This document shows positions 8,884 to 40,208 of a stretch of DNA of 64,000 nucleotides, in pieces. The first letter of the stretch is position 1. The number at the start of each line of letters is the position of its first letter. Origin of the DNA: Clavibacter sp. A6099 (GTDB lineage: Bacteria; Actinomycetota; Actinomycetes; Actinomycetales; Microbacteriaceae); the NCBI RefSeq assembly GCF_021919125.1, contig NZ_CP083439.1, positions 806,001-870,000 on the forward strand. Direction: 5' to 3'. Below the pieces are notes generated by a model. The model saw nothing but the letters and a program-made list of their open reading frames with translations. It was not told the DNA's origin and did not search any database. The translations under genes were made by a program, and so were the position numbers.

Positions 8884-10890
8884 ATGGCAGTGACCGGAGC
8901 AGATGCGGATGCTATCCGCGTGGGCGCACGTCGCGCCGCCGTCCTCCCCACCACCGGATCCCGGCGCCCGCTGGGCACCGACGCCGTCGCCCTCGAGGGC
9001 GGCCTGCTCGCCGCCTGGCAGGAGCGCAACCGGGCCCGCACCATCCCCCACGCCATCGCCTCCATGGCCACGGCGGGCAACCTCGACGACCTCCGCGCGG
9101 CGGTCGACGGGCCGGGGGAGCGGCCCGTCCCGCGTTACCCGTTCCTCGACACCGACGTCTACAAGACCCTCGAGGGCGTGGCCTACGAGATCGGCCGGGG
9201 CACCGCGACAGCGGAGATGCGGGCCTTCGTCGACGAGGCGACGGATGTGCTCGAGCGCGTGCAGGCGGCCGACGGCTACATCGGCTCGTACGCGCAGCGG
9301 CTCGGATCCGACCGCGAGCCCTGGTCCGACCTCGCGTGGGGCCACGAGCTCTACAACCTCGGGCACCTGATCCAGGCCGCGGTCGCCGACTCCCGCCAGG
9401 GCGGCGACGGACGCCTCCTGGCCGTGGCCCGCCGCTTCGCCGACGCCGCGGTCCGCGAGTTCGGCCCGGGCGGACGCGAGGAGGTCTGCGGGCATCCCGA
9501 GGTCGAGATGGCGCTCGTCGAGCTGCACCGCGAGACGGGGGAGCGCGCCTACCTCGACCTCGCCTCCGCGTTCGTCGAGCGGCGTGGCCACGGCACCGTG
9601 GCGACGCGGATCTTCCCGGCCGAGTACTTCCAGGACGCGCACCCCTTCCGCGAGATGCCGGCCGTCACGGGCCACGCCGTCCGCATGGCGTACCTCGCCG
9701 CGGGTGCCACGGACGTGGCGACGGAGACGGGCGACGCGGATCTGCTCGCCGCCTCCGTCCGCCTGTTCGACGACGCCGTGCGCACCCGCCTCTACGTGAC
9801 CGGCGGGCTCGGCAGCCGCCACTCCGACGAGGCCATCGGCGACGCGTACGAGCTGCCGAGCGAGCGCTCCTACAGCGAGACCTGCGCGGCCATCGCCGTG
9901 ATGCAGTGGGCCTGGCGCCTCTTCCTCGCCACCGGCGAGCCCCGATTCCTCGACACGCACGAGACCGTGCTCTTCAACGCCTACGCCGTGGGGCTCTCCG
10001 CCGACGGCACGGGCTTCTTCTACGACAACCCGCTGCAGCGCCGGCCCGACCACCACGCGCAGTCGGGCGCCGAGACCGAGGGCGAGCTGATGCGCCGCCC
10101 GTGGTTCACCTGCCCGTGCTGCCCGCCGAACATCGTCCGCTGGATGAGCGAGCTGCAGGACCACGTGTCCGTCCAGGACGGCGACGACCTCGTGATCGCC
10201 CACCCGGCCGGGTGCGTCATCCGCACCGACGCGATCGACGTCCGCGTGACGACCGACTACCCGTGGGACGGCGCCGTGCGTGTCGAGGTGCTGCGCGCAT
10301 CGGGCGCCGAGAGCGGCATCGTGATCCGCCGTCCGGGCTGGTGCCACTCCGCGACCGCGGTCCTGCAGGGTGCCGACGGGTCGAGCGCCGAGGTGGGCGC
10401 CGAAGCCGACGACCGGTGGATCCGCGCCACCCGCGCCTGGGCCGCCGGCGACGCGCTCGTGGTCGAGCTGGACATGCCGGTGCGCGCCCTCGGATCCCAC
10501 CCGCACCTCGACGCCACCCGCGGAGCCCTCGCGGTGGTGCGCGGACCGGTCGTGTTCGCCCTCGAGCAGGAGGACGCCGGCGCACCCGTCGACGACCTGC
10601 TCCTCGACCCGCGCGACCTGGCGGAGGCACGGACCGTGCCGCTCCCGCTCGCCGCGCCGTGGGGCCCGGCGTCTGGCGCCGCCGATCCCGCGTCGGGCGT
10701 CGCGCTCGCCGTGCGGCTCCGCCGCGCGCTCCCCGCTCCGGACGAGCTCTACCCCGAGGTCGTCCCCGGCACCACCGCACCCGCCGCGTCGGCCGACCCC
10801 GTCGACGCCGTGCTCGTGCCGTACGCCCTCTGGGGCAACCGGTCGCCCGCCGCCATGCGGGTCTGGATCCGCGCCGCCGACACCGGCTGA
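8884..10890 (+). CDS. Glycoside hydrolase family 127, beta-L-arabinofuranosidase-like, cytosolic
   Basis: A 668-residue GH127 (DUF1680) enzyme. The residues known from the Bifidobacterium enzyme HypBA1 are all in place. Glu316 lies in HSDEAIGD (acid/base). Glu332 and Cys334 lie in YSETCA and Cys412-Cys413 in CPCCPPN (zinc ligands, one being the cysteine nucleophile). The 16-residue spacing between the two Glu matches HypBA1. HypBA1 removes arabinofuranose beta-linked to hydroxyproline in plant extensins. There is no signal peptide, so the substrate must be imported. The next genes encode an oligopeptide importer and prolyl peptidases. The free arabinose is not handled by any gene here. The family call is firm; the exact linkage is inferred. 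Confidence 0.9.
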   Translation: MAVTGADADAIRVGARRAAVLPTTGSRRPLGTDAVALEGGLLAAWQERNRARTIPHAIASMATAGNLDDLRAAVDGPGERPVPRYPFLDTDVYKTLEGVAYEIGRGTATAEMRAFVDEATDVLERVQAADGYIGSYAQRLGSDREPWSDLAWGHELYNLGHLIQAAVADSRQGGDGRLLAVARRFADAAVREFGPGGREEVCGHPEVEMALVELHRETGERAYLDLASAFVERRGHGTVATRIFPAEYFQDAHPFREMPAVTGHAVRMAYLAAGATDVATETGDADLLAASVRLFDDAVRTRLYVTGGLGSRHSDEAIGDAYELPSERSYSETCAAIAVMQWAWRLFLATGEPRFLDTHETVLFNAYAVGLSADGTGFFYDNPLQRRPDHHAQSGAETEGELMRRPWFTCPCCPPNIVRWMSELQDHVSVQDGDDLVIAHPAGCVIRTDAIDVRVTTDYPWDGAVRVEVLRASGAESGIVIRRPGWCHSATAVLQGADGSSAEVGAEADDRWIRATRAWAAGDALVVELDMPVRALGSHPHLDATRGALAVVRGPVVFALEQEDAGAPVDDLLLDPRDLAEARTVPLPLAAPWGPASGAADPASGVALAVRLRRALPAPDELYPEVVPGTTAPAASADPVDAVLVPYALWGNRSPAAMRVWIRAADTG

Positions 10891-11039
10891 GCCGTCCCGC
10901 GCGCGCACGCCACTCGGATCCACCCGATCCGGGGCGGTCGCGCGCACCTCCACTTCCTCCCCATCCCTCCCATCGCACGACCCCGTCCGTCACTCCCCAC
11001 CCGGCGCGCCCCGGCCGCCATCCACGAAACGAGAGTCCG

Positions 11040-12719
11040 ATGAACAGACGAATCACCGCAGTCGGGCTGGCTGTCGCCGCCAGCCTCGCCCTCACGTCCT
11101 GCGCCGGCGCAGGCGGCAAGGCCGCCGCCGACATCACCGGCCCCGCCGACACGGGCGGCACCATGCACGTCCTGCAGGTGTCGGACTTCCCGCACCTGGA
11201 TCCCGCGATGGGCTACGAGACCGACCTCGCGGACGTCTACCGGCTCATCTACCGCACGCTCACCACGACCACGGGCAAGGACGGCGCCACGATCGCGCCC
11301 GACCTCGCCACCGACACCGGCACCCCCAACGACGACGACACCGTCTGGACGTTCACGCTCAAGGACGGCCTGAAGTTCGAGGACGGCTCCCCGATCACGA
11401 GCCAGTCGATGAAGTTCGGCGTGGAGCGCTCGTTCGACAAGGCGCTCGCGATCGGCTCGCCGTACGCCCGCATGTACCTCCAGGGCGGCGACAGCTACCA
11501 GGGCCCGTACGTGTCGGGCGACCTGTCCTCCATCGAGACCCCCGACGAGAAGACCATCGTCTTCCACCTCAACCGCTCCGTGCCCGAGTTCGCGAGCGTC
11601 ACCGCGCAGAGCACGTTCGTGCCGTTCCCCGTGGACAAGGACCGCGTCACCGTCACGAGCGTGGACCAGCAGCCCATCTCCTCCGGCCCGTACAAGGTGA
11701 GCGCCCGGACGCCCGGCCAGTCGCTCACGCTCGTGCGCAACCCCGAGTGGGACGCGTCCACCGACGAGGTCCGGACCGCGAAGCCCGACGAGTGGGACTT
11801 CACGATGGGGCTCGACCAGGCCACCATCGACGAGCGCATGATCGCCGGCCAGGGCGACGACGCGAACGCGATCGCCTACGGGATCACCGCGGCGTCGGTG
11901 TCCCGCATCCAGACGCCGCAGATCAAGGCGCGCACCGTCTCGGGCGACAGCGGCTGCACCACGTACCTCGCGCTCAACACGACGAAGCCGCACCTCGGCG
12001 ACGTGCGCGTGCGCCAGGCCATCGCCTACGCCGTGGACAAGAAGTCGCTCGCCGACGTGGCGGGCGGCCCCATGATCGCCGAGCCCGCGTCGACGATCCT
12101 CACCCGCAGCGTCCCCGGTCACAAGGACTTCGACCTCTACCCCAGCACCGACAGCTCGGGTGACGTCGACAAGGCGAAGGCGCTCCTCGCCGAGGCGGGC
12201 CTGCAGGACGGCTTCTCGATCACCCTCGACGTGGCCAGCGTTCCGACGTCGCAGAAGGCCGCGGAGGCGCTCCAGCAGTCCCTCGCCCGCGTCGGCATCA
12301 CCGTGGTGATCAACCTCCTCGACACGGCGACCTACAACGAGACCATCGCCACCACCTCGCAGCAGCACGACGCGGCCGAGGCCGGCTGGTGCCCGGACTG
12401 GAACTCCGCCAGCACGGTGCTGCCGATCCTCTTCGACGGACGCCAGATCCCCGAGAAGGGCAACAGCAACCTGTCGCAGATCAACGACCCCGCCATCAAC
12501 GCGAAGATCGACGAGGTCTCGGCCATGACCGACCTCCAGGCCGCGGACACCGCCTGGGGCGACCTCGACGAGCAGGTCCAGCAGCTCGCACCCGTGGTGC
12601 CGCTCCTCTACGGCCAGGCCGTGCTCGTGCTGGGGCAGAACGTGCGCAACGCGTACTCGAGCCCGATCTTCAACGGGGCCCCCGACTTCGCCACCATCGG
12701 CCTCCACACGGGGAAGTAG
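11040..12719 (+). CDS. Peptide-binding lipoprotein of an ABC importer (SBP family 5)
   Basis: A 559-residue extracytoplasmic binding lipoprotein. Lipobox LTSC lies near residue 21. The SBP_bac_5 signatures follow: FPHLDPAMGYETDLADVYR, LKDGLKFEDGSPIT, GPYKVS, LALNTTKPHLGDVRVRQAI with AYAVDKKSL, and the late segment DLDEQVQQLAPVVPLLYG. The family binds di- and oligopeptides, or sometimes sugars. It starts the importer operon 149 bp after the GH127 gene and 3 bp ahead of the first permease. Given the peptidases that follow, I infer capture of hydroxyproline-containing, possibly arabinosylated, peptides. Start ATG 11040 follows GAGAG. Confidence 0.9.
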   Translation: MNRRITAVGLAVAASLALTSCAGAGGKAAADITGPADTGGTMHVLQVSDFPHLDPAMGYETDLADVYRLIYRTLTTTTGKDGATIAPDLATDTGTPNDDDTVWTFTLKDGLKFEDGSPITSQSMKFGVERSFDKALAIGSPYARMYLQGGDSYQGPYVSGDLSSIETPDEKTIVFHLNRSVPEFASVTAQSTFVPFPVDKDRVTVTSVDQQPISSGPYKVSARTPGQSLTLVRNPEWDASTDEVRTAKPDEWDFTMGLDQATIDERMIAGQGDDANAIAYGITAASVSRIQTPQIKARTVSGDSGCTTYLALNTTKPHLGDVRVRQAIAYAVDKKSLADVAGGPMIAEPASTILTRSVPGHKDFDLYPSTDSSGDVDKAKALLAEAGLQDGFSITLDVASVPTSQKAAEALQQSLARVGITVVINLLDTATYNETIATTSQQHDAAEAGWCPDWNSASTVLPILFDGRQIPEKGNSNLSQINDPAINAKIDEVSAMTDLQAADTAWGDLDEQVQQLAPVVPLLYGQAVLVLGQNVRNAYSSPIFNGAPDFATIGLHTGK

Positions 12720-12722
12720 GCG

Positions 12723-13685
12723 GTGACCGCCACCCTGCAGGGCGCCTCAGCGCCCGACTCCGCCTCTCCGTACCCGACGGGCCGGCCGCCCGCCGTCACG
12801 CCGGCCAAGCGCGTGGTCGCGGCCCTCCGGTCGAAGCCGTCCGTCATCGCCAGCGTCGTGTTCGTGGTGCTGGTCACCGTGCTCGCGGTCTTCGCGCCGC
12901 TCCTGTCCGGGATCACCGGATGGGGTCCCACGACCTTCGACGCGACGGCCGTGGATCCCGTCCTCGGCGGTCTCCCCATCGGCCCGTTCGGCGGCGTCAG
13001 CGCCTCGCACTGGTTCGGCGTGGAGCCGCAGAACGGGCGCGACATCTTCGCCCGCATCGCGTACGGCGCGCGGGTGTCGATGCTCATCGCGGTCTCCGCC
13101 ACGGTCGTCACCACGACGATCGGCGTGGTCGCGGGCATGGTCGCGGGGTACTTCGGGGGGATCGTCGATCAGATCGTCTCCCGGGTCATGGACTTCCTCA
13201 TGGCCTTCCCGGCGTTGATCTTCATGATCGCCATCCTCTCGGCGCTGCCCGCCGGCAACCGGCCGGAGCTGCTCGTCCTCACGCTCGGCATCTTCGGCTG
13301 GCCGTACACGGCGCGCATCGTGCGCGGCCAGACCATGACGATCCGCACGCGTGACTTCGTGGAGGCGGCCCGGGCATCCGGCGCCTCGTCGATGGGCGTG
13401 ATCTTCCGGGAGGTGCTGCCGAACCTGCGCGGCACCGTGATCGTGCTCGCGACGCTCGCGGTGCCGGGCTACATCGGCACCGAGGCGGCCCTGTCCTTCC
13501 TCGGCGTGGGAGTGCTGCCGCCGACGCCGTCGTGGGGCCAGATGATCGCCGACTCGGTGAACTGGTACACGGTCGACCCGGCGTACTTCGTCGTCCCGGG
13601 TTCGTTCCTCTTCCTCACGGTGCTGGCGTTCACGGTCTTCGGCGACCACCTCCGCACCGCGCTCGAGCAGGGGGAGGCGGCATGA
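12723..13685 (+). CDS. Peptide ABC transporter permease (DppC-type)
   Basis: A 320-residue membrane protein with about six helices. The EAA coupling loop reads DFVEAARASGASSMGVIFRE, and the periplasmic part contains HWFGVEPQNGRDIFARIAYG, typical of DppC/OppC. A GTG start lies 3 bp after the binding-protein stop, and the end overlaps the next permease by ATGA, so translation is coupled. The DppC-like gene precedes the DppB-like one, the reverse of the classical dpp/opp order. It should form the inner-membrane channel with the next gene product. Confidence 0.9.
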   Translation: MTATLQGASAPDSASPYPTGRPPAVTPAKRVVAALRSKPSVIASVVFVVLVTVLAVFAPLLSGITGWGPTTFDATAVDPVLGGLPIGPFGGVSASHWFGVEPQNGRDIFARIAYGARVSMLIAVSATVVTTTIGVVAGMVAGYFGGIVDQIVSRVMDFLMAFPALIFMIAILSALPAGNRPELLVLTLGIFGWPYTARIVRGQTMTIRTRDFVEAARASGASSMGVIFREVLPNLRGTVIVLATLAVPGYIGTEAALSFLGVGVLPPTPSWGQMIADSVNWYTVDPAYFVVPGSFLFLTVLAFTVFGDHLRTALEQGEAA

Positions 13686-14674
13686 TCGGCTATCTCCTCC
13701 GCCGCGCCGGATCCGCGCTGATCGTGCTCGCGCTCATCAGCCTGTTCACCTACATGATCTTCTTCCTGCTCCAGCCGGACCCCGCCGTCACCATCTGCGG
13801 CAAGACCTGCACGCCGGACAAGATCGACTCCATCCGCCAGCTCCTCGGCCTCGACCGGCCGTTCTGGGCGCAGTACGGCGACTTCGTGACGGGCATCTTC
13901 ACGGGCCGCACCTACGGGGACGGCCCGACCGCGATCCAGTGCTCCGCGCCCTGCCTGGGCTTCAGCTTCCAGACGCAGCAGCCCGTGCTCGACCTGCTGC
14001 TGTCCCGCCTGCCCGTGAGCGTCACCATCGCGGTCGGCGCGGCGGTCCTCTGGGTCGTCTTCGGCGTGGCCGGCGGCCTCGTCAGCGCGATCAAGCAGGG
14101 CAGCGTGTGGGACCGGACCGCCATGGCGGCGGCGCTCGTCGGGATCAGCGTGCCGACGACATTCGCCGCGCTGCTCCTGCAGTACGTGCTCGTCGTGCAG
14201 CTGCAGATCCTGCCGTTCCCGCAGTCCGTGGAGTTCGGCGACGACCCCGTCCTGTGGTTCGATTCGTACCTCATGCCGTGGATCGTGGTCGCGCTCGGCT
14301 ACGCCTCCGTGTACGCGCGGATCGTGCGGGCCAACGTGCTCGACACGCTCCAGGAGGACTACCTGCGGACCGCGCGGGCCAAGGGCCTGTCGGCGGCGCT
14401 CGTGATCCGCCGCCACGCGCTCCGGCCGTCGCTCACGCCCGTCGTCACGCTGTTCGGCATGGACTTCGCGGGCCTGCTCGGCGGCGCCCTGATCGCCGAG
14501 AGCATCTTCGGCCTCAACGGCGCAGGCAAGCTCGCCGCGGACTCCATCGCCAAGAACGACCAGCCCGTCATCATGGGCGTCACGCTCCTCGCCGCGGCAT
14601 TCGTGGTCGTCGGGAACGTGGTCGTCGACGTGCTGTACACCGTGCTCGACCCCCGAGTGAGGATCACCTCGTGA
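13682..14674 (+). CDS. Peptide ABC transporter permease (DppB-type) with two cysteine pairs
   Basis: A 330-residue partner permease. The amphipathic start MIGYLLRRAGSALIVL and the coupling loop DYLRTARAKGLS are diagnostic of DppB/OppB. The first exposed loop (about residues 30-100) is enlarged and carries two close Cys pairs, ICGKTC and QCSAPC, which could form disulfides outside the membrane. The start overlaps the upstream stop and the end overlaps the ATPase gene through GTGA. I recall similar Cys pairs in other actinobacterial permeases, so they are probably a lineage feature rather than unique to this one. Confidence 0.9.
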   Translation: MIGYLLRRAGSALIVLALISLFTYMIFFLLQPDPAVTICGKTCTPDKIDSIRQLLGLDRPFWAQYGDFVTGIFTGRTYGDGPTAIQCSAPCLGFSFQTQQPVLDLLLSRLPVSVTIAVGAAVLWVVFGVAGGLVSAIKQGSVWDRTAMAAALVGISVPTTFAALLLQYVLVVQLQILPFPQSVEFGDDPVLWFDSYLMPWIVVALGYASVYARIVRANVLDTLQEDYLRTARAKGLSAALVIRRHALRPSLTPVVTLFGMDFAGLLGGALIAESIFGLNGAGKLAADSIAKNDQPVIMGVTLLAAAFVVVGNVVVDVLYTVLDPRVRITS

Positions 14675-15537
14675 CCGCCACCGCACCGCACCAGCCGCCC
14701 GCCCGCGCCGTCCCCGGGACGCCGCTCCTCGAGGTCGCGAACCTGACGATCGCGTTCCCCACCTCCCGGGGGCCGGTGGAGGTGGTGAAGGACCTCTCCT
14801 TCCGGGTGGAGCCGGACAGCACCCTCGGCATCGTGGGGGAGTCCGGATCCGGCAAGTCGATGACCTCGCTCGCCGTGATGGGCCTCGTGCCGCGCGGCGG
14901 GAAGGTCACCGGCAGCATCAAGCTGGCGGGCGAGGAGCTCGTCGGCCGGAGCGACAGGGAGCTGCGGGCCATGCGGGGCGACCGCATGGCGATGGTCTTC
15001 CAGGATCCGCTCTCCTCGCTCAACCCCTACTACACGGTGGGGCTGCAGATCGAGGAGGCCTACCGGTCGCATCGCTCGGGATCCCGGAAGGCCGTGCGGT
15101 CCACCGTGGTGGCGGCGCTCGAGCGGGTCGGGATCAAGGAGGCCTCGACGCGCGTCGACCACTACCCGCACCAGTTCTCGGGCGGCATGCGGCAGCGCAT
15201 CATGATCGCGATGGCGCTGTGCCTCGAGCCCGAGCTGCTCATCGCCGACGAGCCCACCACCGCGCTCGACGTGACGGTGCAGGCGCAGATCCTCGACCTC
15301 ATGCGCTCCATCCGCGCGGAGACGGGGATGGGGATGCTCGTCATCACCCACGACCTCGCCGTCGTGTCCTCCCTCGCCGACGAGGTGCTCGTCATGCAGG
15401 GCGGGCACCGCGTCGAGAGCGGCACCACCGAGCGCGTGTTCACCGCGCCGGAGGATCCGTACACGCACGCCCTGCTCGAGGCGATCCCCCGCATCGACGC
15501 CGCCTACGACCGCCAGACGACGGGACCCGCATCATGA
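14671..15537 (+). CDS. Peptide ABC transporter ATP-binding protein (DppD-type)
   Basis: A 288-residue cytoplasmic ATPase. Walker A GESGSGKS, Q-loop MVFQDPLSSLNP, signature FSGGMRQRI, Walker B LLIADEPTTALD and the switch His in VITHDLAVV are all intact. The DppD/OppD C-terminal oligopeptide extension (DPYTHALLEAIP) is present though short. It energises import together with the following ATPase. GTG start overlapping the permease stop; its own stop overlaps the next start (ATGA). Confidence 0.93.
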   Translation: MTATAPHQPPARAVPGTPLLEVANLTIAFPTSRGPVEVVKDLSFRVEPDSTLGIVGESGSGKSMTSLAVMGLVPRGGKVTGSIKLAGEELVGRSDRELRAMRGDRMAMVFQDPLSSLNPYYTVGLQIEEAYRSHRSGSRKAVRSTVVAALERVGIKEASTRVDHYPHQFSGGMRQRIMIAMALCLEPELLIADEPTTALDVTVQAQILDLMRSIRAETGMGMLVITHDLAVVSSLADEVLVMQGGHRVESGTTERVFTAPEDPYTHALLEAIPRIDAAYDRQTTGPAS

Positions 15538-16472
15538 GCCGCCACGACGCCTCCGCGCCCGCACCCACCTCGCCCGCGCCCGCCGCGGCGACGCCCGAGC
15601 CCTTCCTCTCCGCACGCGACCTCACGAAGGAGTACGTGACGCGCGGCGGCCGGGGGCTCCGACCGCCCGTTCGCCGCTTCCTCGCGGTCGACGGCGTGAG
15701 CCTCGACGTGCCGACCGGGCAGACGCTCTCGATCGTGGGGGAGTCCGGATCCGGCAAGTCGACGACCGCGCGCATCATCGCGCACCTGCTCGACCCGACC
15801 TCCGGCACGTTCGCGCTCAAGGGCGAGGACATGACGCACGCGAAGGGCGCCGCCCTCCGCGAGTTCCGGCGGCAGGTGCAGGTGGTGTTCCAGGATCCGG
15901 CGTCGTCGCTCAATCCGCGGCACACGGTGGAGCAGATCATCAGCGCGCCGCTGCGGTACCAGGGCATCACGACGCCGGGCGGGCAAGCGCAGCTCGTGCG
16001 CGACCTGCTCGACCGGGTGGGGCTGAACCCCGACCACGCGCAGCGCTACCCCGCGCAGTTCTCGGGCGGGCAGTGCCAGCGCATCGGGATCGCGCGGGCG
16101 CTCGCCGTGAGCCCGGGCCTCATCGTGTGCGACGAGGCGGTCTCCGCGCTCGACGTGACGGTGCAGGCGCGCGTCATCGCGCTGCTCCGCGACCTCCAGC
16201 GGGAGCGCGGGCTCAGCTACGTCTTCATCGCGCACGACCTCGCCGTCGTGCGCCAGCTCTCCGACCGCGTCGCCGTCATGAGCGCGGGCAAGGTCGTGGA
16301 GGAGGGGACGCGCGACGACGTGTTCGAGCGCCCGCAGCACCCGTACACGCGCGCGCTGCTCGACGCCGTGCCGCGCATCGACCCCGAGTGGGACCGCAAG
16401 CGGCAGGCCGCGCGCGTCGCGGCCGGGCTCGACACCACCGCCATCGAGACGGCGGGCGGGTCGGCCGCGTGA
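15534..16472 (+). CDS. Peptide ABC transporter ATP-binding protein (DppF-type)
   Basis: A 312-residue second ATPase. The N-terminal ~25 residues are Ala/Pro-rich, then the nucleotide-binding domain shows Walker A GESGSGKSTT, Q-loop VVFQDPASSLNPRHT, signature FSGGQCQRIGIARAL, Walker B LIVCDEAVSALD and FIAHDLAVV. HPYTRALLDAVPRIDPEWD is the OppF/DppF tail. In this pair of ATPases the Walker B Pro-Thr of DppD is replaced by Ala-Val, a common DppF variant. It closes the importer set and is coupled by a 4-bp overlap to the aminopeptidase gene. Confidence 0.93.
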   Translation: MSRHDASAPAPTSPAPAAATPEPFLSARDLTKEYVTRGGRGLRPPVRRFLAVDGVSLDVPTGQTLSIVGESGSGKSTTARIIAHLLDPTSGTFALKGEDMTHAKGAALREFRRQVQVVFQDPASSLNPRHTVEQIISAPLRYQGITTPGGQAQLVRDLLDRVGLNPDHAQRYPAQFSGGQCQRIGIARALAVSPGLIVCDEAVSALDVTVQARVIALLRDLQRERGLSYVFIAHDLAVVRQLSDRVAVMSAGKVVEEGTRDDVFERPQHPYTRALLDAVPRIDPEWDRKRQAARVAAGLDTTAIETAGGSAA

Positions 16473-19257: not shown

Positions 19258-19274
19258 CACAGAGGAGGACCCGC

Positions 19275-19988: not shown

Positions 19989-20027
19989 TCCGCTCGGCGC
20001 CGCCTCGCTTCCCCTGCGCCACGATGT

Positions 20028-20045: not shown

Positions 20046-20101
20046 CGCCGTTCGCCACCCCGCCTCCCCGAGGCGCATCCACCCGTGAGAGCAGGGACAC
20101 C

Positions 20102-21331
20102 ATGACGCGTCACGTGGTCGTCGTGGGCGGGGGCATCGTCGGGGCCGCGTGCGCCCGGTCGCTCGCCCGCGCGGGGATCCGCGTCACGGTCGTCGAGCGC
20201 GCCGCGGTCGCCTCCGGCACGAGCGCGCAGGGCGAGGGCAACATCCTCGTGTCCGACAAGGGCCCGGGCGCCGAGCTCGAGCTCGCCCAGCTGGCCGCCC
20301 GCCGCTGGCCCGAGGTGGCCGCCGAGCTCGCGGACGAGCTGGGCTACGCGCTGCCCTCCATCGAGTACGAGCCCAAGGGCGGGCTCGTCGTCACGACCAC
20401 CGACGAGGGCGCGGATCCGCTCCTCGCCTTCGCCGCCACCCAGCGCTCCGCGGGCGTCGACGCCGTGCCCGTCGACCGGCGCCGGGCGCTCGAGCTCGAG
20501 CCGTGGCTGAACCCGGCGATCACCGCGGCCGTGCACTACCCCGAGGACGCGCAGGTGCAGCCCGCCATCGCGACCGAGGCGCTCGCCGCGTCGGCCAGGC
20601 GGGCGGGCGCGGTCGTGCGCACCGGGGTCGAGGTCATCGGGCCGCTGCTCGACGCGGACGGCGCGCTCCGCGGGGTGCGGACGAGCGCGGGCGACATCCC
20701 CGCGGACGACGTGCTGATCGCCGCAGGGCCGTGGTCGGGCGAGGTGGCGCGGACCCTCGGCGTCGAGCTGCCCGTGCTGCCGCGCCGAGGCGTCGTCCTC
20801 GTGACCACGCGCATGCCGCACCGCATCCGGCACAAGGTCTACGACGGCGACTACGTGGGCGCGGTCGGATCCGGCGACGGCGCGCTGCAGACCTCGGGCG
20901 TCGTGGAGTCGACGCCGTCGGGGACGGTGCTCATCGGATCCAGCCGCGAGCGCGTCGGCTTCGACGCGTCGCTGCGCGTGGCCGTGCTCGAGGAGCTCGC
21001 CGCGAAGGCCGTGCGCCTCTTCCCCTTCCTCGTCGAGGCGAACGCGATGCGCTCCTACGGCGGGTTCCGGCCCTACCTGCCCGACCACCTGCCCGTCGTC
21101 GGACCCGACCCGCGGCTGCCCGGCCTCTGGCATGCGAGCGGCCACGAGGGCGCCGGGATCGGCCTGTCGGTCGCGACCGCGGACCTCATCGTGGCGCAGA
21201 TGATGGGTGTCGCGACGCCGCTCGACGTGCGGCCCTTCTCGGTCGCGCGCGCCTCGCTCGGGCTGCTGATGCCCGGGGCCGCCGCGCCCGGCGTCGCGCT
21301 GCCGACCGACGCGGCCGGAGCGCGCGCATGA
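20102..21331 (+). CDS. D-hydroxyproline dehydrogenase, FAD oxidoreductase (HcnC/DAO-like) subunit
   Basis: A 409-residue D-amino-acid-oxidase-type flavoprotein. The FAD site is VVVVGGGIVGAACARSLARA, followed by GTSAQGEGNI. The C-terminal GLWHASGHEGAGIGLSVATA is the usual closing dinucleotide motif. The family includes the catalytic subunit of bacterial heterotrimeric D-hydroxyproline dehydrogenases (LhpB/HcnC type). The gene overlaps a small [2Fe-2S] gene, which overlaps a second flavoprotein, giving the expected three-subunit set. It would oxidise cis-4-hydroxy-D-proline to 1-pyrroline-4-hydroxy-2-carboxylate. The substrate follows from the complete pathway around it. Confidence 0.85.
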   Translation: MTRHVVVVGGGIVGAACARSLARAGIRVTVVERAAVASGTSAQGEGNILVSDKGPGAELELAQLAARRWPEVAAELADELGYALPSIEYEPKGGLVVTTTDEGADPLLAFAATQRSAGVDAVPVDRRRALELEPWLNPAITAAVHYPEDAQVQPAIATEALAASARRAGAVVRTGVEVIGPLLDADGALRGVRTSAGDIPADDVLIAAGPWSGEVARTLGVELPVLPRRGVVLVTTRMPHRIRHKVYDGDYVGAVGSGDGALQTSGVVESTPSGTVLIGSSRERVGFDASLRVAVLEELAAKAVRLFPFLVEANAMRSYGGFRPYLPDHLPVVGPDPRLPGLWHASGHEGAGIGLSVATADLIVAQMMGVATPLDVRPFSVARASLGLLMPGAAAPGVALPTDAAGARA

Positions 21332-21666
21332 CGCCGCGGCGCGTGGATCCGGCGCGCGACCCGATCCGCCCGGAGCCGGCCGCTGCCGTCCGCTTCACCG
21401 TGGACGGGGATCCCGTCGAGGGCGTCAGCGGCCAGACCATCGCGGGCGCGCTGCTCGCCTCCGGCACGCTCGCCTGGCGGACGACCGCGAGCGCGGGCCG
21501 TCCCCGCGGGGTCTTCTGCGGGATCGGCGTGTGCTTCGACTGCACCGTGACCGTGAACGGGCTGCCCGACGTGCGCGCCTGCCAGCGGCGCGCGGTCGAG
21601 GGCGACGTGGTCGAGACCGGGCCGGGCGCGACCGTGCCCGACGCGCGCGCGGGGGAGGCGTCGTGA
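21328..21666 (+). CDS. D-hydroxyproline dehydrogenase, small [2Fe-2S] subunit
   Basis: A 112-residue ferredoxin-like protein. The cluster motif CGIGVCFDCTVTVNG, followed by the fourth Cys in VRACQ, matches the Fer2_4 domain of the HcnA/LhpF-type gamma subunit. The rest is a short beta-grasp (VRFTVDGDPVEGVSGQTIAGAL). It overlaps both neighbours by 4 bp, so all three dehydrogenase subunits are co-translated. It should carry electrons between the two flavoproteins. Confidence 0.88.
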   Translation: MTPRRVDPARDPIRPEPAAAVRFTVDGDPVEGVSGQTIAGALLASGTLAWRTTASAGRPRGVFCGIGVCFDCTVTVNGLPDVRACQRRAVEGDVVETGPGATVPDARAGEAS

Positions 21667-23315
21667 GCGGCGCGGACGACCGGCGGCACGTCGTCGTGAT
21701 CGGCGCGGGACCGGCCGGGCTGGCCGCCGCGGTCGCCGCGCGAGGTCGCGGGGCGCGCGTCACGCTGCTCGACGCGTCCGACGAGCTCGGCGGCCAGTAC
21801 TGGCGGCACCTCCCGGCGACGCGGCCCGCCGCGCGCGAGCGGATCCTGCACCACGGCTGGGACGCGTTCACGGCGCTCCGCGGGCGGCTCGCGGCCGACG
21901 ACGGCTGCGAGATCGTGACGGGCGCGCAGGTGTGGGCGATCGAGCGGCCGGATCCGGACGCGACCGGGCCCGCTGACGCGCCCGCGCCGCCCGCCGCCGT
22001 CGTGCACGTGCTGGTCGGCCAGGTCGACGGATCCCGCCGCGAGCCCCTGACCCTCCGCCCGGACGCGCTCGTGCTCGCGACCGGCGCGCACGACCGCACG
22101 CTGCCCTTCCCCGGCTGGGACCTGCCGGGCGTCTTCAGCGCGGGCGCCGCGCAGGCCCTCGCGAAGGGCGAGCGCGTGCGCGTAGGCGACCGCGTGATCG
22201 TCGCGGGCGCCGGCCCCTTCCTCCTGCCCGTCGCCGTGTCGCTCGTGCAGGCGGGGGCGCGCGTCGTCGGGATCCACGAGGCCGCGCGCGTGCCCGGTCT
22301 CGCCCGCGGCTGGCTGCGCAGTCCGCTCGGCCTCGCCCGCGCCCCGCACAAGGCCGCCGAGCTCGCCGGGTACGTCTCCGTGCTGGCGCGGGAGCGCGTC
22401 GGCTACTCCACGGGCAGCGCGGTGGTCGCGGCGCACGGCACCGACCGCGTCGAGGCCGTGACCGTGCAGCGGCTCGACGCGTCGTGGGCGCCGATCCCGG
22501 GCACCGAGCGGCGGATCGCCGTGGACGCCGTGTGCGTCGGCCACGGGTTCACGCCCCGGCTCGAGCTGCCGATCGCCGCGGGCTGCCGCATCGGCGCCGA
22601 CCGCTTCGTCGAGGTCGACGCGTCCCAGGGCGCCGGGCCCGCCGGCGTGCACGCGGCGGGCGAGATCACGGGCATCGGGGGAGTGGATCAGGCACTCGCG
22701 GAGGGCGAGGTCGCGGGGCACTGCGCCGCGGGCGGATCCCCGTCGGACGCCGCCGTCGCTGCCGCCGTCCGCCGCCGCGCCGTCGCGCACGACGTGGCCG
22801 TCCGCATCGAGGCCGCGCACGGGATCCGCCCCGGCTGGACCGGCTGGCTCCGCGACGACACGCTCGCGTGCCGCTGCGAGGAGGTGCCCGTCGGCCGGAT
22901 CCGCGCGACCGCCCGCGCCGCGCGCTCCACCGACCTGCGATCCATGAAGCTCGCCACGCGCGCCGGCCTCGGCATCTGCCAGGGCCGCGTCTGCGGGCGC
23001 ACCGTCGAGCAGCTGCTCGAGGCCGAGGCGCCGAGTTGCGGGGGTTCCGCCGCGACCGCTCCCGCGACCGTCGCCCCTGCCGGCCCCGGATCCGACCGCC
23101 GCCCCATCGCCTCGCCCGTGCGCCTCGGCGAGCTCGCCGCCGCGTACGAGCGCCGCGACGCCGGACCCCCCTCCCTCGCCGCGGCCGCGCCCGGCGTCGA
23201 CGACCCGCCCGCCGGCGTCGCGGATCCGCCGCCCGCCGCCGATCCGCCGCGCGACACCGCGCCCCCGACCACCCCCGCACCTCCCCGCACCACCGACCGG
23301 AAGGACACCCCTTGA
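21663..23315 (+). CDS. D-hydroxyproline dehydrogenase, NAD/FAD (HcnB-like) subunit with Pro-rich tail
   Basis: A 550-residue flavoprotein. Its first site is VVVIGAGPAGLAAAVAARGRG, its second nucleotide site RVIVAGAGPFLLPVAVSLVQ, and its closing segment GVHAAGEITGIGGVDQALAE. A BFD-type [2Fe-2S] domain follows, with Cys in LACRCEEV and GICQGRVCG. This is the HcnB/LhpE architecture. The last ~60 residues are Pro/Ala/Asp-rich, look disordered and have no counterpart in the family core. GTG start overlapping the ferredoxin stop; the stop overlaps the TTG start of the deaminase gene. Confidence 0.86.
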   Translation: MSGADDRRHVVVIGAGPAGLAAAVAARGRGARVTLLDASDELGGQYWRHLPATRPAARERILHHGWDAFTALRGRLAADDGCEIVTGAQVWAIERPDPDATGPADAPAPPAAVVHVLVGQVDGSRREPLTLRPDALVLATGAHDRTLPFPGWDLPGVFSAGAAQALAKGERVRVGDRVIVAGAGPFLLPVAVSLVQAGARVVGIHEAARVPGLARGWLRSPLGLARAPHKAAELAGYVSVLARERVGYSTGSAVVAAHGTDRVEAVTVQRLDASWAPIPGTERRIAVDAVCVGHGFTPRLELPIAAGCRIGADRFVEVDASQGAGPAGVHAAGEITGIGGVDQALAEGEVAGHCAAGGSPSDAAVAAAVRRRAVAHDVAVRIEAAHGIRPGWTGWLRDDTLACRCEEVPVGRIRATARAARSTDLRSMKLATRAGLGICQGRVCGRTVEQLLEAEAPSCGGSAATAPATVAPAGPGSDRRPIASPVRLGELAAAYERRDAGPPSLAAAAPGVDDPPAGVADPPPAADPPRDTAPPTTPAPPRTTDRKDTP

Positions 23316-24229
23316 CCGCACCCGCCCTGGACCTCGGAGGCGTCGTCGTCGCCACCACGCTGCCGTTCCGCGAGGACGCGTCGGCCCCCGCCGGCCTGGC
23401 CGTCGACTACGACGCGTACGCCCGGCACTGCGACTGGCTCATGTCGAACGGCTGCCGCGGCGTCGGCCCGAACGGATCGCTGGGCGAGTACTCCTCGCTC
23501 ACGGACGAGGAGCGCCGCAAGGTCGTGCAGGTCGCGGTCGAGACCGTCGGCGACCGCGGGATCGTCGTGGCCGGCGTGCACGGCGTCGGCTGGCACCAGG
23601 CCAAGAAGTGGGCCGAGATCGCGGCCGAGGACGGCGCGGACGGCGTGCTGCTCCTGCCGCCCACCATCTACCGGGCGAGCGACGACGAGGTCGTCGAGCA
23701 CTACGCGCGCGTCGACGAGGTGGGCCTGCCGATCATGGCGTACAACAACCCGTTCGACACCAAGGTCGACCTCACGCCGCAGCTCCTGCAGCGCCTCGAC
23801 GCCCTCGAGAACGTCGTGGCGATCAAGGAGTTCTCGGGCGACATCCGGCGGGTGACGGAGATCCAGGACCTCACGGGCCTCGACGTCATCGCGGGCGCCG
23901 ACGACCTGCTGCTCGAGTCGCTCATCATGGGCGCCGTCGGCTGGTTCGCGGGCTACCCGAACGCGTTCCCGCGCGAGGCCGTCGAGCTGTACGGGCTCGC
24001 GACCAGCGGCCGCATCGAGGAGGCCAAGGAGCTGTACCGCCACCTCGTGCCGGTGTTCCGCTGGGACTCGCGCACCGAGTTCGTGCAGGCCATCAAGCTG
24101 TCGATCGACGTGGCAGGCGAGAGCACGGGCGGCCCGACGCGTCCGCCGCGCGCGCCCCTGCCCGCCGCGGTCGCCGCCGAGGTCACGCGCGACACGCGCC
24201 GCGCGCTCGACCACCTCGCCGGGCGATGA
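23312..24229 (+). CDS. DHDPS-family enzyme, probable 1-pyrroline-4-hydroxy-2-carboxylate deaminase
   Basis: A 305-residue class I aldolase-fold lyase. The Schiff-base Lys172 sits in VAIKEFSGD, the Tyr in MAYNNPFDT, and the pyruvate-binding loop is GPNGSLGEYSSLTDEE. The carboxyl end is a helical region with the EFVQAIKLS motif. Relatives include dihydrodipicolinate synthase and the hydroxyproline-pathway deaminase (LhpC), which yields alpha-ketoglutarate semialdehyde. Its place between the D-Hyp dehydrogenase and the epimerase/semialdehyde dehydrogenase supports the latter. TTG start chosen because GGAAGGAC precedes it and it overlaps the upstream stop. Confidence 0.85.
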   Translation: MTAPALDLGGVVVATTLPFREDASAPAGLAVDYDAYARHCDWLMSNGCRGVGPNGSLGEYSSLTDEERRKVVQVAVETVGDRGIVVAGVHGVGWHQAKKWAEIAAEDGADGVLLLPPTIYRASDDEVVEHYARVDEVGLPIMAYNNPFDTKVDLTPQLLQRLDALENVVAIKEFSGDIRRVTEIQDLTGLDVIAGADDLLLESLIMGAVGWFAGYPNAFPREAVELYGLATSGRIEEAKELYRHLVPVFRWDSRTEFVQAIKLSIDVAGESTGGPTRPPRAPLPAAVAAEVTRDTRRALDHLAGR

Positions 24230-24236
24230 TCGAGGG

Positions 24237-25238
24237 ATGAGGTCCTCCCGCGTCTTCCACGCCGTCGACTCGCACACGGAGGGCATGCCGACCCGCGTCG
24301 TCACGAGCGGGTTCGGCGTGATCCCCGGCTCCACCATGAACGAGCGCCGACTGCACCTGATCGAGCACCTCGACCACCTGCGGCTCCTGCTCATGACGGA
24401 GCCGCGCGGCCACGCGGCCATGAGCGGCGCGATCCTGCAGCCGCCCACGCGCGACGACTGCGACTGGGGCGTCCTCTACATAGAGGTGTCCGGCTGCCTG
24501 CCGATGTGCGGCCACGGCACCATCGGCGTCGCGACCGTGCTCGTGGAGACCGGGCTCGTGGAGGTGCAGGAGCCGGTCACCACGATCCGGCTCGACACCC
24601 CCGCCGGCCTCGTGATCGCGCGCGTCGACGTCGAGGACGGGCGTGCCGCGTCCGTCACGATCGAGAACGTGCCCTCCTACGTGGAGCGGCTCGACGCGGT
24701 CGTCGATGTGCCGGGCTACGGCGCCGTCCCGTACAGCCTCGCGTTCGGCGGCAACTTCTACGCGGTCGTCGAGCTCGACGCGCTGGGGCTGCCGTTCGAC
24801 CGCGAGCGGCAGCAGGAGATCCTCGCCGCCGGGCTCGCGATCATGGGCGCCATCAACGAGCAGGACGCGCCGTCGCACCCGGAGATCTCCGGCGTCGACC
24901 ACTGCCACCACGTGGAGTTCCTCGCGCCCGGATCGGACGCCAGGCTCTCGCGGCACGCCATGGCGATCCATCCCGGCTGGTTCGACCGGTCGCCGTGCGG
25001 CACCGGCACGTCCGCGCGCATGGCCGAGCTGTGGGCGCGCGGCGAGCTGGCGGTCGGCGACGAGTTCGTCAACGAGTCGTTCATCGGCAGCCGCTTCACC
25101 GGGCGGATCCTGCGGGAGACGACCGTCGCCGGCCGGCCCGCCATCGTCCCCGCCATCACCGGGCGCGCGTGGATCACCGGCATGGGACAGTACCTGCTGG
25201 ACCCCACCGACCCGTTCCCGAGCGGCTTCCGGTTCTGA
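24237..25238 (+). CDS. Proline racemase family, probable 4-hydroxyproline 2-epimerase
   Basis: A 333-residue cofactor-free epimerase. Both catalytic cysteines are present: Cys91 in MCGHGTIG and Cys254 in SPCGTGTSARMA. This fits a two-base racemase/epimerase and argues against the Cys/Thr hydroxyproline dehydratases of the same family. HAVDSHTEGMPTRVV at the start and GGNFYAVVE in the middle are typical. It converts trans-4-hydroxy-L-proline to cis-4-hydroxy-D-proline, the substrate of the dehydrogenase. It starts 7 bp after the deaminase stop with a poor ribosome site, suggesting translational coupling. Confidence 0.88.
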   Translation: MRSSRVFHAVDSHTEGMPTRVVTSGFGVIPGSTMNERRLHLIEHLDHLRLLLMTEPRGHAAMSGAILQPPTRDDCDWGVLYIEVSGCLPMCGHGTIGVATVLVETGLVEVQEPVTTIRLDTPAGLVIARVDVEDGRAASVTIENVPSYVERLDAVVDVPGYGAVPYSLAFGGNFYAVVELDALGLPFDRERQQEILAAGLAIMGAINEQDAPSHPEISGVDHCHHVEFLAPGSDARLSRHAMAIHPGWFDRSPCGTGTSARMAELWARGELAVGDEFVNESFIGSRFTGRILRETTVAGRPAIVPAITGRAWITGMGQYLLDPTDPFPSGFRF

Positions 25239-25263
25239 ACCGGCGCCCCCACCGAGGAGAGAC

Positions 25264-26775
25264 ATGACCCCGCACGAGACCGACACGACCATCGACCCGA
25301 CCGTGGATCCCGCAGTCGCCGCGACCGTCGACGCCGTCGCCGCGCGCGCCGCCCTGGCCGCCGCGCCGCTCGCCGCCCTGGCGCCCGCCGCCCGTGCCCG
25401 CGCGCTCGACGCCGTCGCCGACGCGCTCGAGGCGATCCGCCCCGAGCTGCTGCCGGTGGCCGAGCGGGAGACCGCGCTCGCGCCCGGCCGCCTCGCCGGC
25501 GAGCTGACGCGCACGACCGTGCAGCTGCGGATCCTCGCGGCCGCCGTGCGCGACGGCCGCTACCTCGACGCCCGCATCGACCACGCGGACGCCGATGCGG
25601 CGCCCGCCCCGCGCCCCGACATCCGCCGGTACCTCGTGCCGGTGGGTCCGGTGCTCAACTTCGCGGCGTCGAACTTCCCGTTCGCGTTCTCCGTCGCGGG
25701 CGGAGACACGGCGTCGGCGCTCGCTGTCGGCTGCCCGGTGGTCGTGAAGGCGCACCCGGGTCACCCCGAGCTGTCGCGCCGGGTCGCCGAGGCCGCGTCC
25801 GCCGCGCTCGTGGCGGCGGGCCTCCCCGAGGGCACGCTCCAGCTCGTCGAGGGCGAGGAGGCGGGGCTCGCCGTGCTGCGCGACCCGCGCATCCGCGCCG
25901 CCACCTTCACGGGATCGCTCCGCGCCGGCCGCTTCCTCGCCGACGTCGCCGCCGCCCGCCCCGACCCGATCCCGTTCTTCGGCGAGCTCGGCAGCGTCAA
26001 CCCCGTCGTCATCACCGAGCGCGCCGCCGCCGAGCGCGGCGAGGACATCGCGTCGGCACTCGTGGCGAGCGCCGCCGGATCCGCCGGGCAGCTCTGCACC
26101 GCGCCCGGCATCGTGCTGATCCCCGCGGGCCACGGCCTCGACCCCGTCCTCGCGGAGGAGGCCGGCGCCGTCGCGCCGCACGGGATGCTCAACCCGAGGA
26201 TCGCCGAGGGCTACGCGGGCGGCCGTGCCGCCGCGATCGCGGTCGACGGCGTGCGCCTCGTCGCGGAGGGCCGCGCGCCCGCGGGCGACGACGGATCCGT
26301 GACCCCCACCGTGGCCGCCGTCTCGCTCGCCGACTTCGAGGCCGCGGCCGACGTGCTGCGCCACGAGGTCTTCGGGCCGTTCGCGCTCCTCGTCGAGTAC
26401 CCCGCGGGCACCGACCTCGCCGCGCTCGCCGCCTGCACGTTCCAGGGCGAGCTGACCGCGAGCGTCCACCTCGGCGCCGAGGAGGCCGATCCGGCCGCGG
26501 CCGAGCTGATCCGCGTGCTCGCCGCCCGCGCCGGCCGCGTGCTCGTCGACGCCTGGCCCACGGGCGTCTCCGTCACCGACGCGCAGCAGCACGGCGGACC
26601 CTGGCCCGCCACCACGCTCGACCGCGGCACGAGCGTCGGCACCGCGTCGCTCGACCGGCTGCTCCGCGGCGTCGCGTTCCAGGGCGTGCCCGACGCCCTG
26701 CTGCCGGAGCCGCTGCGCACCGCGAACCCGTGGGGCGTGCCCCAGCGGGTGAGCGCGCGCGGCGCCCGCGCCTGA
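25264..26775 (+). CDS. Alpha-ketoglutarate semialdehyde dehydrogenase (ALDH family)
   Basis: A 503-residue aldehyde dehydrogenase. Cys278 in GQLCTAPG is the nucleophile and Glu241 in FFGELGSVNP the general base. NFAASNFPFAFSVAGGDTAS and KAHPGHPE line the cofactor site. The ELGSVNP and GQLCTAPG forms are those of alpha-ketoglutarate semialdehyde dehydrogenases in the hydroxyproline and sugar-acid pathways. It completes the route, feeding 2-oxoglutarate into the TCA cycle. It has a strong GAGGAGAG site 25 bp after the epimerase stop. It is the last gene of the block; a 180-bp gap follows. Confidence 0.88.
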   Translation: MTPHETDTTIDPTVDPAVAATVDAVAARAALAAAPLAALAPAARARALDAVADALEAIRPELLPVAERETALAPGRLAGELTRTTVQLRILAAAVRDGRYLDARIDHADADAAPAPRPDIRRYLVPVGPVLNFAASNFPFAFSVAGGDTASALAVGCPVVVKAHPGHPELSRRVAEAASAALVAAGLPEGTLQLVEGEEAGLAVLRDPRIRAATFTGSLRAGRFLADVAAARPDPIPFFGELGSVNPVVITERAAAERGEDIASALVASAAGSAGQLCTAPGIVLIPAGHGLDPVLAEEAGAVAPHGMLNPRIAEGYAGGRAAAIAVDGVRLVAEGRAPAGDDGSVTPTVAAVSLADFEAAADVLRHEVFGPFALLVEYPAGTDLAALAACTFQGELTASVHLGAEEADPAAAELIRVLAARAGRVLVDAWPTGVSVTDAQQHGGPWPATTLDRGTSVGTASLDRLLRGVAFQGVPDALLPEPLRTANPWGVPQRVSARGARA

Positions 26776-35398: not shown

Positions 35399-35410
35399 TC
35401 CCGCGCGCAC

Positions 35411-40207: not shown

Positions 40208-40208
40208 A

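What the first reader, a model, noticed from the sequence alone, without database searches (positions are those of the whole stretch)
8884..26775. Single-locus system for importing and consuming plant hydroxyproline-rich glycoprotein (extensin) fragments
Seen: one strand carries in order a GH127 enzyme with all HypBA1 catalytic and zinc residues, a complete oligopeptide ABC importer, a long-type prolyl aminopeptidase, an Xaa-Pro aminopeptidase, an FCD GntR regulator, a three-subunit D-hydroxyproline dehydrogenase, a DHDPS-like deaminase, a two-cysteine proline-racemase-type epimerase and an alpha-ketoglutarate semialdehyde dehydrogenase. Known: the last six gene products make up the bacterial trans-4-hydroxyproline to 2-oxoglutarate route, and GH127 HypBA1 splits arabinofuranose from hydroxyproline-linked arabinan of extensins. 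Inferred: together they take arabinosylated Hyp-peptides from plant wall glycoproteins all the way to the TCA cycle. I do not know of a described cluster joining all these steps.
Basis: partly seen in the sequence, partly recalled or inferred. Interest (0 to 1): 0.9.

Follow-up and report, generated by a model that had tools for sequence, protein, structure and literature searches.

The report
Hydroxyproline glycopeptide uptake and catabolism locus
A group of actinobacteria appears to carry one jointly controlled gene set that takes up sugar-decorated peptides from plant walls, strips sugar and peptide bonds inside the cell, and burns the unusual amino acid hydroxyproline; the pieces are known separately, but the papers found do not describe their union.

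Summary
The gene block is real. Fifteen genes lie on the + strand of a Clavibacter-genus genome in two tight units: GH127, peptide ABC importer, prolyl-aminopeptidase-like enzyme, aminopeptidase P and GntR; then D-hydroxyproline dehydrogenase (three subunits), deaminase, epimerase and aldehyde dehydrogenase. I add three results. (1) The 12-mer GTAATATGTCAC occurs exactly twice in the 3.3-Mb genome, once before each unit; it shares the core ATGTCAC with the operator footprinted for HypR, the hydroxyproline (Hyp) repressor of Streptomyces coelicolor. (2) GH127 enzymes at least 51% identical lie directly before the same importer in 61 of 62 testable loci; distant GH127s in 0 of 12. The Hyp genes are attached in several arrangements. 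(3) A matrix built only from published HypR sites scores 10 or more upstream of GH127 in 57 of 65 close loci, 0 of 15 distant ones and 77 of 1540 control windows. Best reading: a HypR-controlled route that imports Hyp-peptides, probably still arabinosylated, and takes them to 2-oxoglutarate plus arabinose. Substrates are inferred, not shown. The parts are known; the joined, conserved, co-regulated system is a new variant.

The parts
8811..8839 (+). Probable promoter of the GH127 unit: TTGCCA (8811-8816), 17-base spacer, TGTAAT (8834-8839)
   Evidence: Read by eye; lies in a block nearly invariant in 12 aligned Clavibacter upstream rows, 11 genomes; the consensus scanner found no promoter in 8480-27000
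8835..8846 (+). HypR-type operator GTAATATGTCAC overlapping the -10 of the GH127 promoter
   Evidence: One of only two exact copies in the genome; the same 11-mer TAATATGTCAC scores 10.8 with the published-site matrix in Clavibacter loci
8884..10890 (+). GH127 beta-L-arabinofuranosidase-type enzyme, 668 aa, no signal-like N-terminus
   Evidence: PF07944 5.6e-83; alignment with 3wkw/HypBA1; key residues; N-terminal hydropathy
11040..12719 (+). Lipoprotein peptide-binding protein (SBP_bac_5)
   Evidence: PF00496 5.8e-75 (on frame 10911-12719); best solved relative 2wok OppA2, 289 bits; lipobox-like LTSC
12723..13685 (+). OppC-type permease
   Evidence: PF00528
13682..14674 (+). OppB-type permease
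   Evidence: PF00528, PF19300 (on frame 13532-14674)
14671..15537 (+). OppD-type ATPase
   Evidence: PF00005, PF08352 (on frame 13939-15537)
15534..16472 (+). OppF-type ATPase
   Evidence: PF00005, PF08352 (on frame 15219-16472)
16469..17776 (+). Long prolyl-aminopeptidase-like alpha/beta hydrolase
   Evidence: PF00561; 8jgn 1.8e-97 and, weakly, proline iminopeptidases
17773..19257 (+). Aminopeptidase P (Xaa-Pro aminopeptidase)
   Evidence: PF00557, PF05195 (on frame 16693-19257); 4pv4, 2bww
19275..19988 (+). GntR/FCD regulator, HypR-like
   Evidence: PF00392, PF07729
20028..20039 (-). HypR-type operator (GTAATATGTCAC on the - strand) in front of the Hyp unit
   Evidence: Second of two exact genome copies; a site upstream of the DAO-subunit gene in 19 of 25 loci scanned, the window's own L003 included
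20102..21331 (+). D-hydroxyproline dehydrogenase, DAO flavoprotein subunit
   Evidence: PF01266 2.7e-65 (on frame 20024-21331); solved relatives are glycine oxidases and the like
21328..21666 (+). D-hydroxyproline dehydrogenase, 2Fe-2S subunit
   Evidence: PF13510 7.2e-23 (on frame 20149-21666)
21663..23315 (+). D-hydroxyproline dehydrogenase, FAD/BFD subunit
   Evidence: PF07992, PF04324 (on frame 21531-23315)
23312..24229 (+). DHDPS-family pyrroline-4-hydroxy-2-carboxylate deaminase (by context)
   Evidence: PF00701 4.8e-44; 3na8
24237..25238 (+). 4-hydroxyproline 2-epimerase-type proline racemase, two catalytic Cys (C91, C254)
   Evidence: PF05544 1.4e-128; NF010578 348 bits, cut-off 376 not reached; Cys pair
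25264..26775 (+). Aldehyde dehydrogenase, alpha-ketoglutarate semialdehyde type by context
   Evidence: PF00171; long matches to 3v4c and 1eyy

Best explanation
The locus is a HypR-type regulon in two units for eating hydroxyproline (Hyp)-rich plant glycoprotein fragments. Inferred order of work: (1) short Hyp-peptides, at least some still carrying beta-L-arabinofuranose on Hyp, are bound by the lipoprotein SBP and imported by the Opp-type ABC transporter; (2) in the cytosol GH127 removes arabinose, aminopeptidase P removes the residue in front of Hyp or Pro, and the prolyl-aminopeptidase-like hydrolase removes N-terminal Hyp or Pro, so that the peptide unzips; (3) free trans-4-L-Hyp is epimerised to cis-4-D-Hyp, oxidised by the three-subunit dehydrogenase, deaminated to alpha-ketoglutarate semialdehyde and oxidised to 2-oxoglutarate; (4) arabinose goes to the arabinose pathway (an L-arabinose isomerase gene lies elsewhere in the genome); (5) the GntR/FCD protein represses both promoters and is relieved when Hyp is metabolised. 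Shown here: gene content, two-unit structure, operator-like sites in both promoters, conservation of the union. Inferred: substrates, import of glycosylated peptides, order of cleavage, repressor action and inducer.
For: Gene families. Operator: exactly two exact copies in 3.3 Mb, one per unit; in a degenerate pattern search of the genome they are the only 0-mismatch site and one of two 2-mismatch sites. The core equals that of the footprinted S. coelicolor HypR site TACAATGTCAC (PMC6608401; passages), where HypR covers the -10 of its own promoter, as the site does here by eye. Independent matrix from the 7 published bound sites: score >=10 in 57/65 close GH127 loci, 0/15 distant, 77/1540 control windows. 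Synteny: SBP next to GH127 in 61/62 loci with at least 2 kb downstream, PIP or PepP in 60/62, a Hyp gene within the fetched stretch in 44/62, against 0/12 for distant GH127s; the genomes of the other 18 of 62 all have a HypE 68-80% identical (18/18). Several arrangements of the Hyp genes relative to GH127. No signal-like hydrophobic N-terminus above the cut-off on 63 of 63 close GH127s examined, against 53 of 62 SBPs with one. AraA in the genome and near the cluster in L045.
Against: Nothing shows the ligand of the SBP or the activity of GH127; the catalytic residues are family-wide, and the two nearest solved GH127s are not HypBA1. The only NCBIfam model hit by GH127 is aceric acid hydrolase, far below its cut-off (316 against 950 bits). 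The epimerase misses the 4HypE cut-off (348 against 376). Six Streptomyces loci have no convincing operator directly before GH127 (L036, L051, L060, L062, L065, L073), and 6 of 25 loci lack one before the DAO-subunit gene (L051, L060, L063, L064, L065, L068). In some genomes the Hyp block is far away: in L046 the HypE lies about 230 kb from the locus by coordinates. Two of 18 genus genomes (G007, G014) lack a close GH127. I did not search for the extracellular enzyme that would free the peptides. In S. [quoted passage not shown]
Confidence: 0.72

Rival explanations
1. Same source, separate streams: the importer brings in naked Hyp-peptides, while GH127 acts on free arabinobiose or Ara-Hyp that enters by this or another transporter, as in Bifidobacterium longum; the genes are co-regulated only because both products come from the same wall glycoproteins.
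For: B. longum HypBA1 is intracellular and works on imported beta-arabinobiose (PMC7263609, introduction read); the SBP is of the peptide family.
Against: Here GH127 is the first gene of the peptide-importer unit and stays adjacent to it in 61/62 loci; no sugar importer belongs to the unit.
Confidence: 0.18
2. Collagen- or gelatin-type Hyp-peptide utilisation as proposed for S. coelicolor, with GH127 serving another plant glycan such as a rhamnogalacturonan-II side chain.
For: The S. coelicolor HypR regulon includes a putative M9 collagenase (PMC6608401); the aceric acid hydrolase model hits this GH127 below cut-off.
Against: A sugar enzyme for another glycan would not be expected to stay beside a peptide importer under a Hyp-type operator in so many genera.
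Confidence: 0.07
3. Bystander: GH127 was placed beside the Hyp genes by chance and kept by inheritance.
For: The cluster is patchy: 3 of 197 class genomes carry a GH127 at least 58% identical to ours, own genome included.
Against: Conserved adjacency in distant genera, several arrangements, and an operator-like site retained before GH127.
Confidence: 0.03

Closest known systems
HypR-controlled L-hydroxyproline operon SCO6289-6294 of Streptomyces coelicolor (PMC6608401; abstract, passages and one section read)
   Same: Same order DAO, 2Fe-2S, FAD/BFD oxidoreductase, DHDPS, proline-racemase family; GntR/FCD regulator; operator core ATGTCAC
   Different: The published regulon has a putative M9 collagenase; no word beginning arabin, glycosid, extensin, oligopeptide or peptide occurs in the main text. 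Here GH127, a peptide importer and two peptidases are joined, and the aldehyde dehydrogenase gene follows in the operon
HypAA/HypBA2/HypBA1 system of Bifidobacterium longum (PMC7263609, introduction read)
   Same: Intracellular GH127 beside an ABC importer, aimed at beta-L-arabinofuranose of Hyp-rich glycoproteins
   Different: B. longum cleaves outside and imports arabinobiose by a sugar ABC transporter; here the importer is of the peptide family and Hyp catabolism is joined to it
XeHypBA1/BA2/AA of Xanthomonas euvesicatoria (PMC6085000, abstract read)
   Same: GH127 enzyme shown to release arabinose from Ara-Hyp
   Different: No importer-peptidase-Hyp-pathway union is mentioned in the abstract; the BA2-AA operon there is controlled by HrpX
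4-hydroxyproline 2-epimerase families of the proline racemase superfamily (PMC4113996, passages and one section read)
   Same: Epimerase with DAO, DHDPS and aldehyde dehydrogenase neighbours; S. lividans grows on t4Hyp
   Different: No word beginning glycosid, extensin or plant in the main text; peptidases are mentioned once, for a t3Hyp-dehydratase cluster of Bacilli
Predicted extensin use by Latescibacteria (PMC4454575, passages read)
   Same: GH127 predicted to release arabinose from extensin in genomes that also encode oligopeptide transporters
   Different: Genome-level prediction in another phylum; no linked Hyp operon or HypR operator in the passages read

Membership tests
Actinobacterial HypR-type Hyp operon | Gene order DAO, Fer2, FAD oxidoreductase, DHDPS, proline racemase | tested here: met
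   order of SCO6289-6293 from PMC6608401
Actinobacterial HypR-type Hyp operon | HypR operator before the operon | tested here: met
   GTAATATGTCAC at 20028-20039, core ATGTCAC identical to the footprinted site; binding itself not tested
Actinobacterial HypR-type Hyp operon | GntR/FCD regulator orthologous to SCO6294 | tested here: inconclusive
   Domains met; the SCO6294 sequence itself was not at hand
4-hydroxyproline 2-epimerase | Two catalytic cysteines (not Thr at the second site, as in 3-Hyp dehydratase) | tested here: met
   C91 and C254; 6r76, named proline racemase in the file and a 3-Hyp dehydratase from recall, has RSPTGTG at the second site
4-hydroxyproline 2-epimerase | NCBIfam equivalog cut-off | tested here: not met
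   NF010578 348.4 bits against 376; the other five models hit are also below cut-off
4-hydroxyproline 2-epimerase | Activity on trans-4-Hyp | not testable with these tools
   Needs an assay
GH127 beta-L-arabinofuranosidase | GH127 catalytic domain and the residues E322, E338, C340, C417, C418 of HypBA1 | tested here: met
   residue roles from PMC10728902 passages
GH127 beta-L-arabinofuranosidase | Hydrolysis of beta-L-Araf-Hyp | not testable with these tools
   HypBA1 is not the closest solved relative
Aceric acid hydrolase (GH127) | NF049879 cut-off | tested here: not met
   316 bits against 950
B. longum-type HRGP system | Sugar-type ABC importer beside GH127 | tested here: not met
   Importer is SBP_bac_5 / oligo_HPY peptide type
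B. longum-type HRGP system | GH121 and GH43 partner enzymes in the genome | not tested
   No search for them was made

The most novel reading that the evidence does not exclude
Actinomycetes have an import-first route for plant hydroxyproline-arabinosides: intact arabinosylated Hyp-peptides, possibly including plant peptide hormones that carry the same sugar linkage, are taken up whole and are deglycosylated and unzipped inside the cell under control of the hydroxyproline repressor, unlike the outside-first route described for Bifidobacterium longum.
Probability: 0.5. Interest if true: 0.75.

Novelty: new variant of a known kind. Interest (0 to 1): 0.62.

Why it matters
In the papers seen, bacterial routes into hydroxyproline-rich glycoproteins are described as separate fragments: sugar removal in some species, free-Hyp catabolism in others. 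A single regulon joining uptake, deglycosylation, peptide unzipping and Hyp oxidation gives a complete testable pathway, predicts the substrate of a whole clade of GH127 enzymes and of one peptide-binding protein family, and extends the HypR regulon from collagen to plant walls.

Tried and rejected
A bystander GH127 was rejected on synteny and operator grounds. Reading the epimerase as a trans-3-Hyp dehydratase was rejected because both cysteines are present. The shuffle test inside the window alone is weak (9 of 100 shuffles gave two or more hits at up to 2 mismatches; 7 of 100 for the degenerate form at up to 1 mismatch), so I rely on the whole-genome count and the published-site matrix. My own 23-mer matrix was trained on 15 of the sites it then scores, so its scores on those are circular, and its shuffles keep only single-base composition. 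The published-site matrix is independent of my sites, but its cut-off of 10 was chosen after seeing the table (at >=7: close 62/65, distant 2/15, controls 248/1540); control windows include coding DNA and may include true sites; and the loci are related to one another (many Nonomuraea, several Clavibacter and Streptomyces). The genome-contig scan found 115 relatives and kept the best 80, so 35 weaker ones were never seen. In the class survey six genomes had GH127 at 46-49% identity; none shows the importer beside it within the flank held, which for L108 is only about 0.4 kb. The Pfam sweep of flanking genes (60 of the 127 ORFs listed) shows no recurring extra family that extends the system among the 25 of 70 families displayed, but a second GH127 lies in the flanks of at least five close loci (L019, L038; L023, L028, L036). 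A site before GntR was found in 6 of 30 loci (L019, L049, L054, L055, L064, L068), as expected if GntR mostly lies inside the GH127 unit. No structure prediction was run.
Full report
What is there. The window lies in a 3,325,806-base genome whose genus mates are Clavibacter: the named records L015, L016 and L034 match in position the unnamed same-genus genomes G012, G006 and G013. Fifteen + strand genes from 8884 to 26775 match the finding. Family evidence is, nearest solved relatives. With the starts I chose, neighbouring genes overlap by four bases from OppC to aminopeptidase P and from the DAO subunit to the deaminase, as in operons. There are two units: GH127 to GntR (8884-19988; 149 bases lie between GH127 and the SBP gene), and the D-hydroxyproline dehydrogenase to aldehyde dehydrogenase genes (20102-26775). 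In the genus, 16 of 18 genomes (own included) have a GH127 86% or more identical, one of them in two pieces on one contig and one over two contigs; G007 and G014 have only distant ones.

The link between the units. While reading the raw sequence I saw the same 12-mer before both units: GTAATATGTCAC at 8835-8846 and, reversed, at 20028-20039. In the whole genome there are two exact copies, these two, and one copy with a single mismatch elsewhere, in a stretch without any of the cluster's genes (L004). A longer degenerate pattern drawn up from relatives' sites finds the GH127 site with 0 mismatches, the dehydrogenase site with 2, one unrelated site with 2, and the rest with 3; in total 19 hits against 21 for the reversed control, so the 3-mismatch level is noise. 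Only afterwards did I read that HypR of Streptomyces coelicolor, a GntR/FCD repressor of the Hyp operon, binds TACAATGTCAC and a consensus ending in ATGTCAC, covering the -10 of its own promoter (PMC6608401: abstract and passages; one section); the 12-mer search came before that, the degenerate one after it. Here the operator overlaps a TGTAAT that stands 17 bases after a TTGCCA (8811-8839, read by eye). This block is nearly invariant in 12 aligned Clavibacter rows while the bases further upstream diverge (rows L010 and L034 are the same genome, so 11 genomes). The consensus scanner reports no promoter, and a terminator-like match at 8812-8829 that is at the chance level (2 found, 1.5 expected).

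Conservation of the union. A scan of the species-genome collection with the GH127 protein found 115 relatives, of which the best 80 are held. They fall into 65 at 51-92% identity and 15 at 44% or less. Of the 65, 62 have at least 2 kb downstream: 61 have the SBP gene directly next (the exception, L031, keeps PIP, PepP and Hyp genes), 60 have PIP or PepP, and 44 have a Hyp gene in the fetched stretch. Of the 12 distant ones with enough flank, none has any of these. For the 18 close loci without a Hyp gene in the stretch, the genome still encodes a HypE 68-80% identical to ours, 18 of 18; in L046 it is about 230 kb away. The 44 fall into groups as I read the table: Hyp genes downstream in the same direction (14 loci, such as Plantibacter and Agromyces), divergently on the other side (8, such as Isoptericola, Terrabacter and Krasilnikoviella), DHDPS and in part HypE after the peptidase genes (21, such as Nonomuraea and Streptomyces), or upstream in the same direction (L051). 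Repeated re-arrangement that keeps the parts together points to shared function.

Conservation of the operator. A matrix from the seven bound S. coelicolor sites alone reaches 10 or more upstream of GH127 in 57 of 65 close loci, 0 of 15 distant loci and 77 of 1540 same-length windows drawn elsewhere in these loci. With my own matrix, sites before the DAO-subunit gene beat all 60 shuffles in 19 of 25 loci scanned (Clavibacter, Okibacterium, Leifsonia, Plantibacter, Agromyces, Microbacterium, Planctomonas, Krasilnikoviella, Isoptericola and one Streptomyces); L051, L060, L063, L064, L065 and L068 have none. Loci lacking a good site before GH127 by both matrices are six Streptomyces (L036, L051, L060, L062, L065, L073).

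Where the enzymes work. Of 63 close GH127 N-termini examined (of 65), none has a hydrophobic stretch above the cut-off of 1.6 (the highest, L036, is 1.51), while 53 of 62 SBPs do; in the window the prolyl-aminopeptidase-like enzyme (1.39) and aminopeptidase P (-0.01) are also below it. This is hydropathy only, not a signal-peptide predictor. So GH127 appears cytosolic, and the sugar must enter attached to something. Because GH127 leads the peptide-importer unit, I think the sugar enters on the peptide. This is inference. Beta-L-arabinofuranose is reported on Hyp-rich glycoproteins and on peptide hormones (PMC7263609, introduction). L-arabinose isomerase is present in the genome and lies near the cluster in one relative, L045.

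Limits. The GH127 active-site residues are kept in all 65 close and, except C415 in 2 of 15, in all distant family members held; they show chemistry, not the substrate. Of the ten positions, E322, E338, C340, C415, C417 and C418 are named in PMC10728902 (passages); the three histidines and the tyrosine are from recall. HypBA1 is only the third-best solved relative. The NCBIfam cut-offs for 4-Hyp epimerase and aceric acid hydrolase are both missed. The extracellular step that frees the peptides is unknown and was not searched for. The union is uncommon: 3 of 197 class genomes, own included, have a GH127 at least 58% identical, and in each the SBP gene is beside it.

Comparison with print. Nine searches of an open-access library listed no paper that by title or abstract start, or in the passages I read, joins GH127, a peptide importer, peptidases and Hyp catabolism; two searches showed 25 of 93 and 15 of 71 papers. 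Known separately: the HypR-controlled Hyp operon with a putative collagenase (PMC6608401); HypBA1 in B. longum with a sugar importer (PMC7263609); a Xanthomonas GH127 that releases arabinose from Ara-Hyp (PMC6085000, abstract); 4-Hyp epimerase families (PMC4113996, passages and one section); predicted GH127-based extensin use in Latescibacteria (PMC4454575, passages). Most subscription papers are not in the library, so absence from print is provisional.

Verdict. It is a new variant of known Hyp-catabolic and glycoprotein-degrading systems.

Noticed in passing
window 29263-29607 (-): PemK/MazF-like toxin-type gene (PF02452) just downstream of the acyl-CoA oxidase gene; the 84-codon - strand frame at 29601-29852 overlaps its start and could be an antitoxin.
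   Followed up: no
window 32543-49423 (+): Two successive large right-handed beta-helix proteins (PF13229/NosD), then a sugar transferase, a glycosyltransferase and a 2151-aa PKD/LamG protein at 42971-49423: looks like a surface polysaccharide or adhesin region.
   Followed up: no
window 52000-64000: G+C falls from about 0.70-0.77 to about 0.66-0.70, suggesting a region of different origin.
   Followed up: no
L023:1465-4509 (-), L028:6367-9375 (-), L036:18486-20444 (+): A second GH127-family gene near the cluster; in L023 and L028 it is joined to a LamG domain. The N-terminus of L036 and, less clearly, of L023 looks secreted (1.76 and 1.58; L028 as called does not): candidates for an extracellular partner.
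   Followed up: partly
L019, L045, L067, L075 flanks: Proline-racemase homologues about 36% identical to HypE (two adjacent in L019) lie near the cluster; possibly trans-3-hydroxyproline dehydratases.
   Followed up: no
window 8790-8805: GCCGCAAACGCTTCAT just upstream of the promoter, conserved in Clavibacter but for a few variable bases, resembles a LacI-family operator (recalled consensus); perhaps a second control of the GH127 unit.
   Followed up: no
L006-L017, L034 (SBP gene): Within Clavibacter the SBP is either about 79-82% or about 94-98% identical to the window's while GH127 stays at 87-95%, as if two SBP alleles have been exchanged.
   Followed up: no
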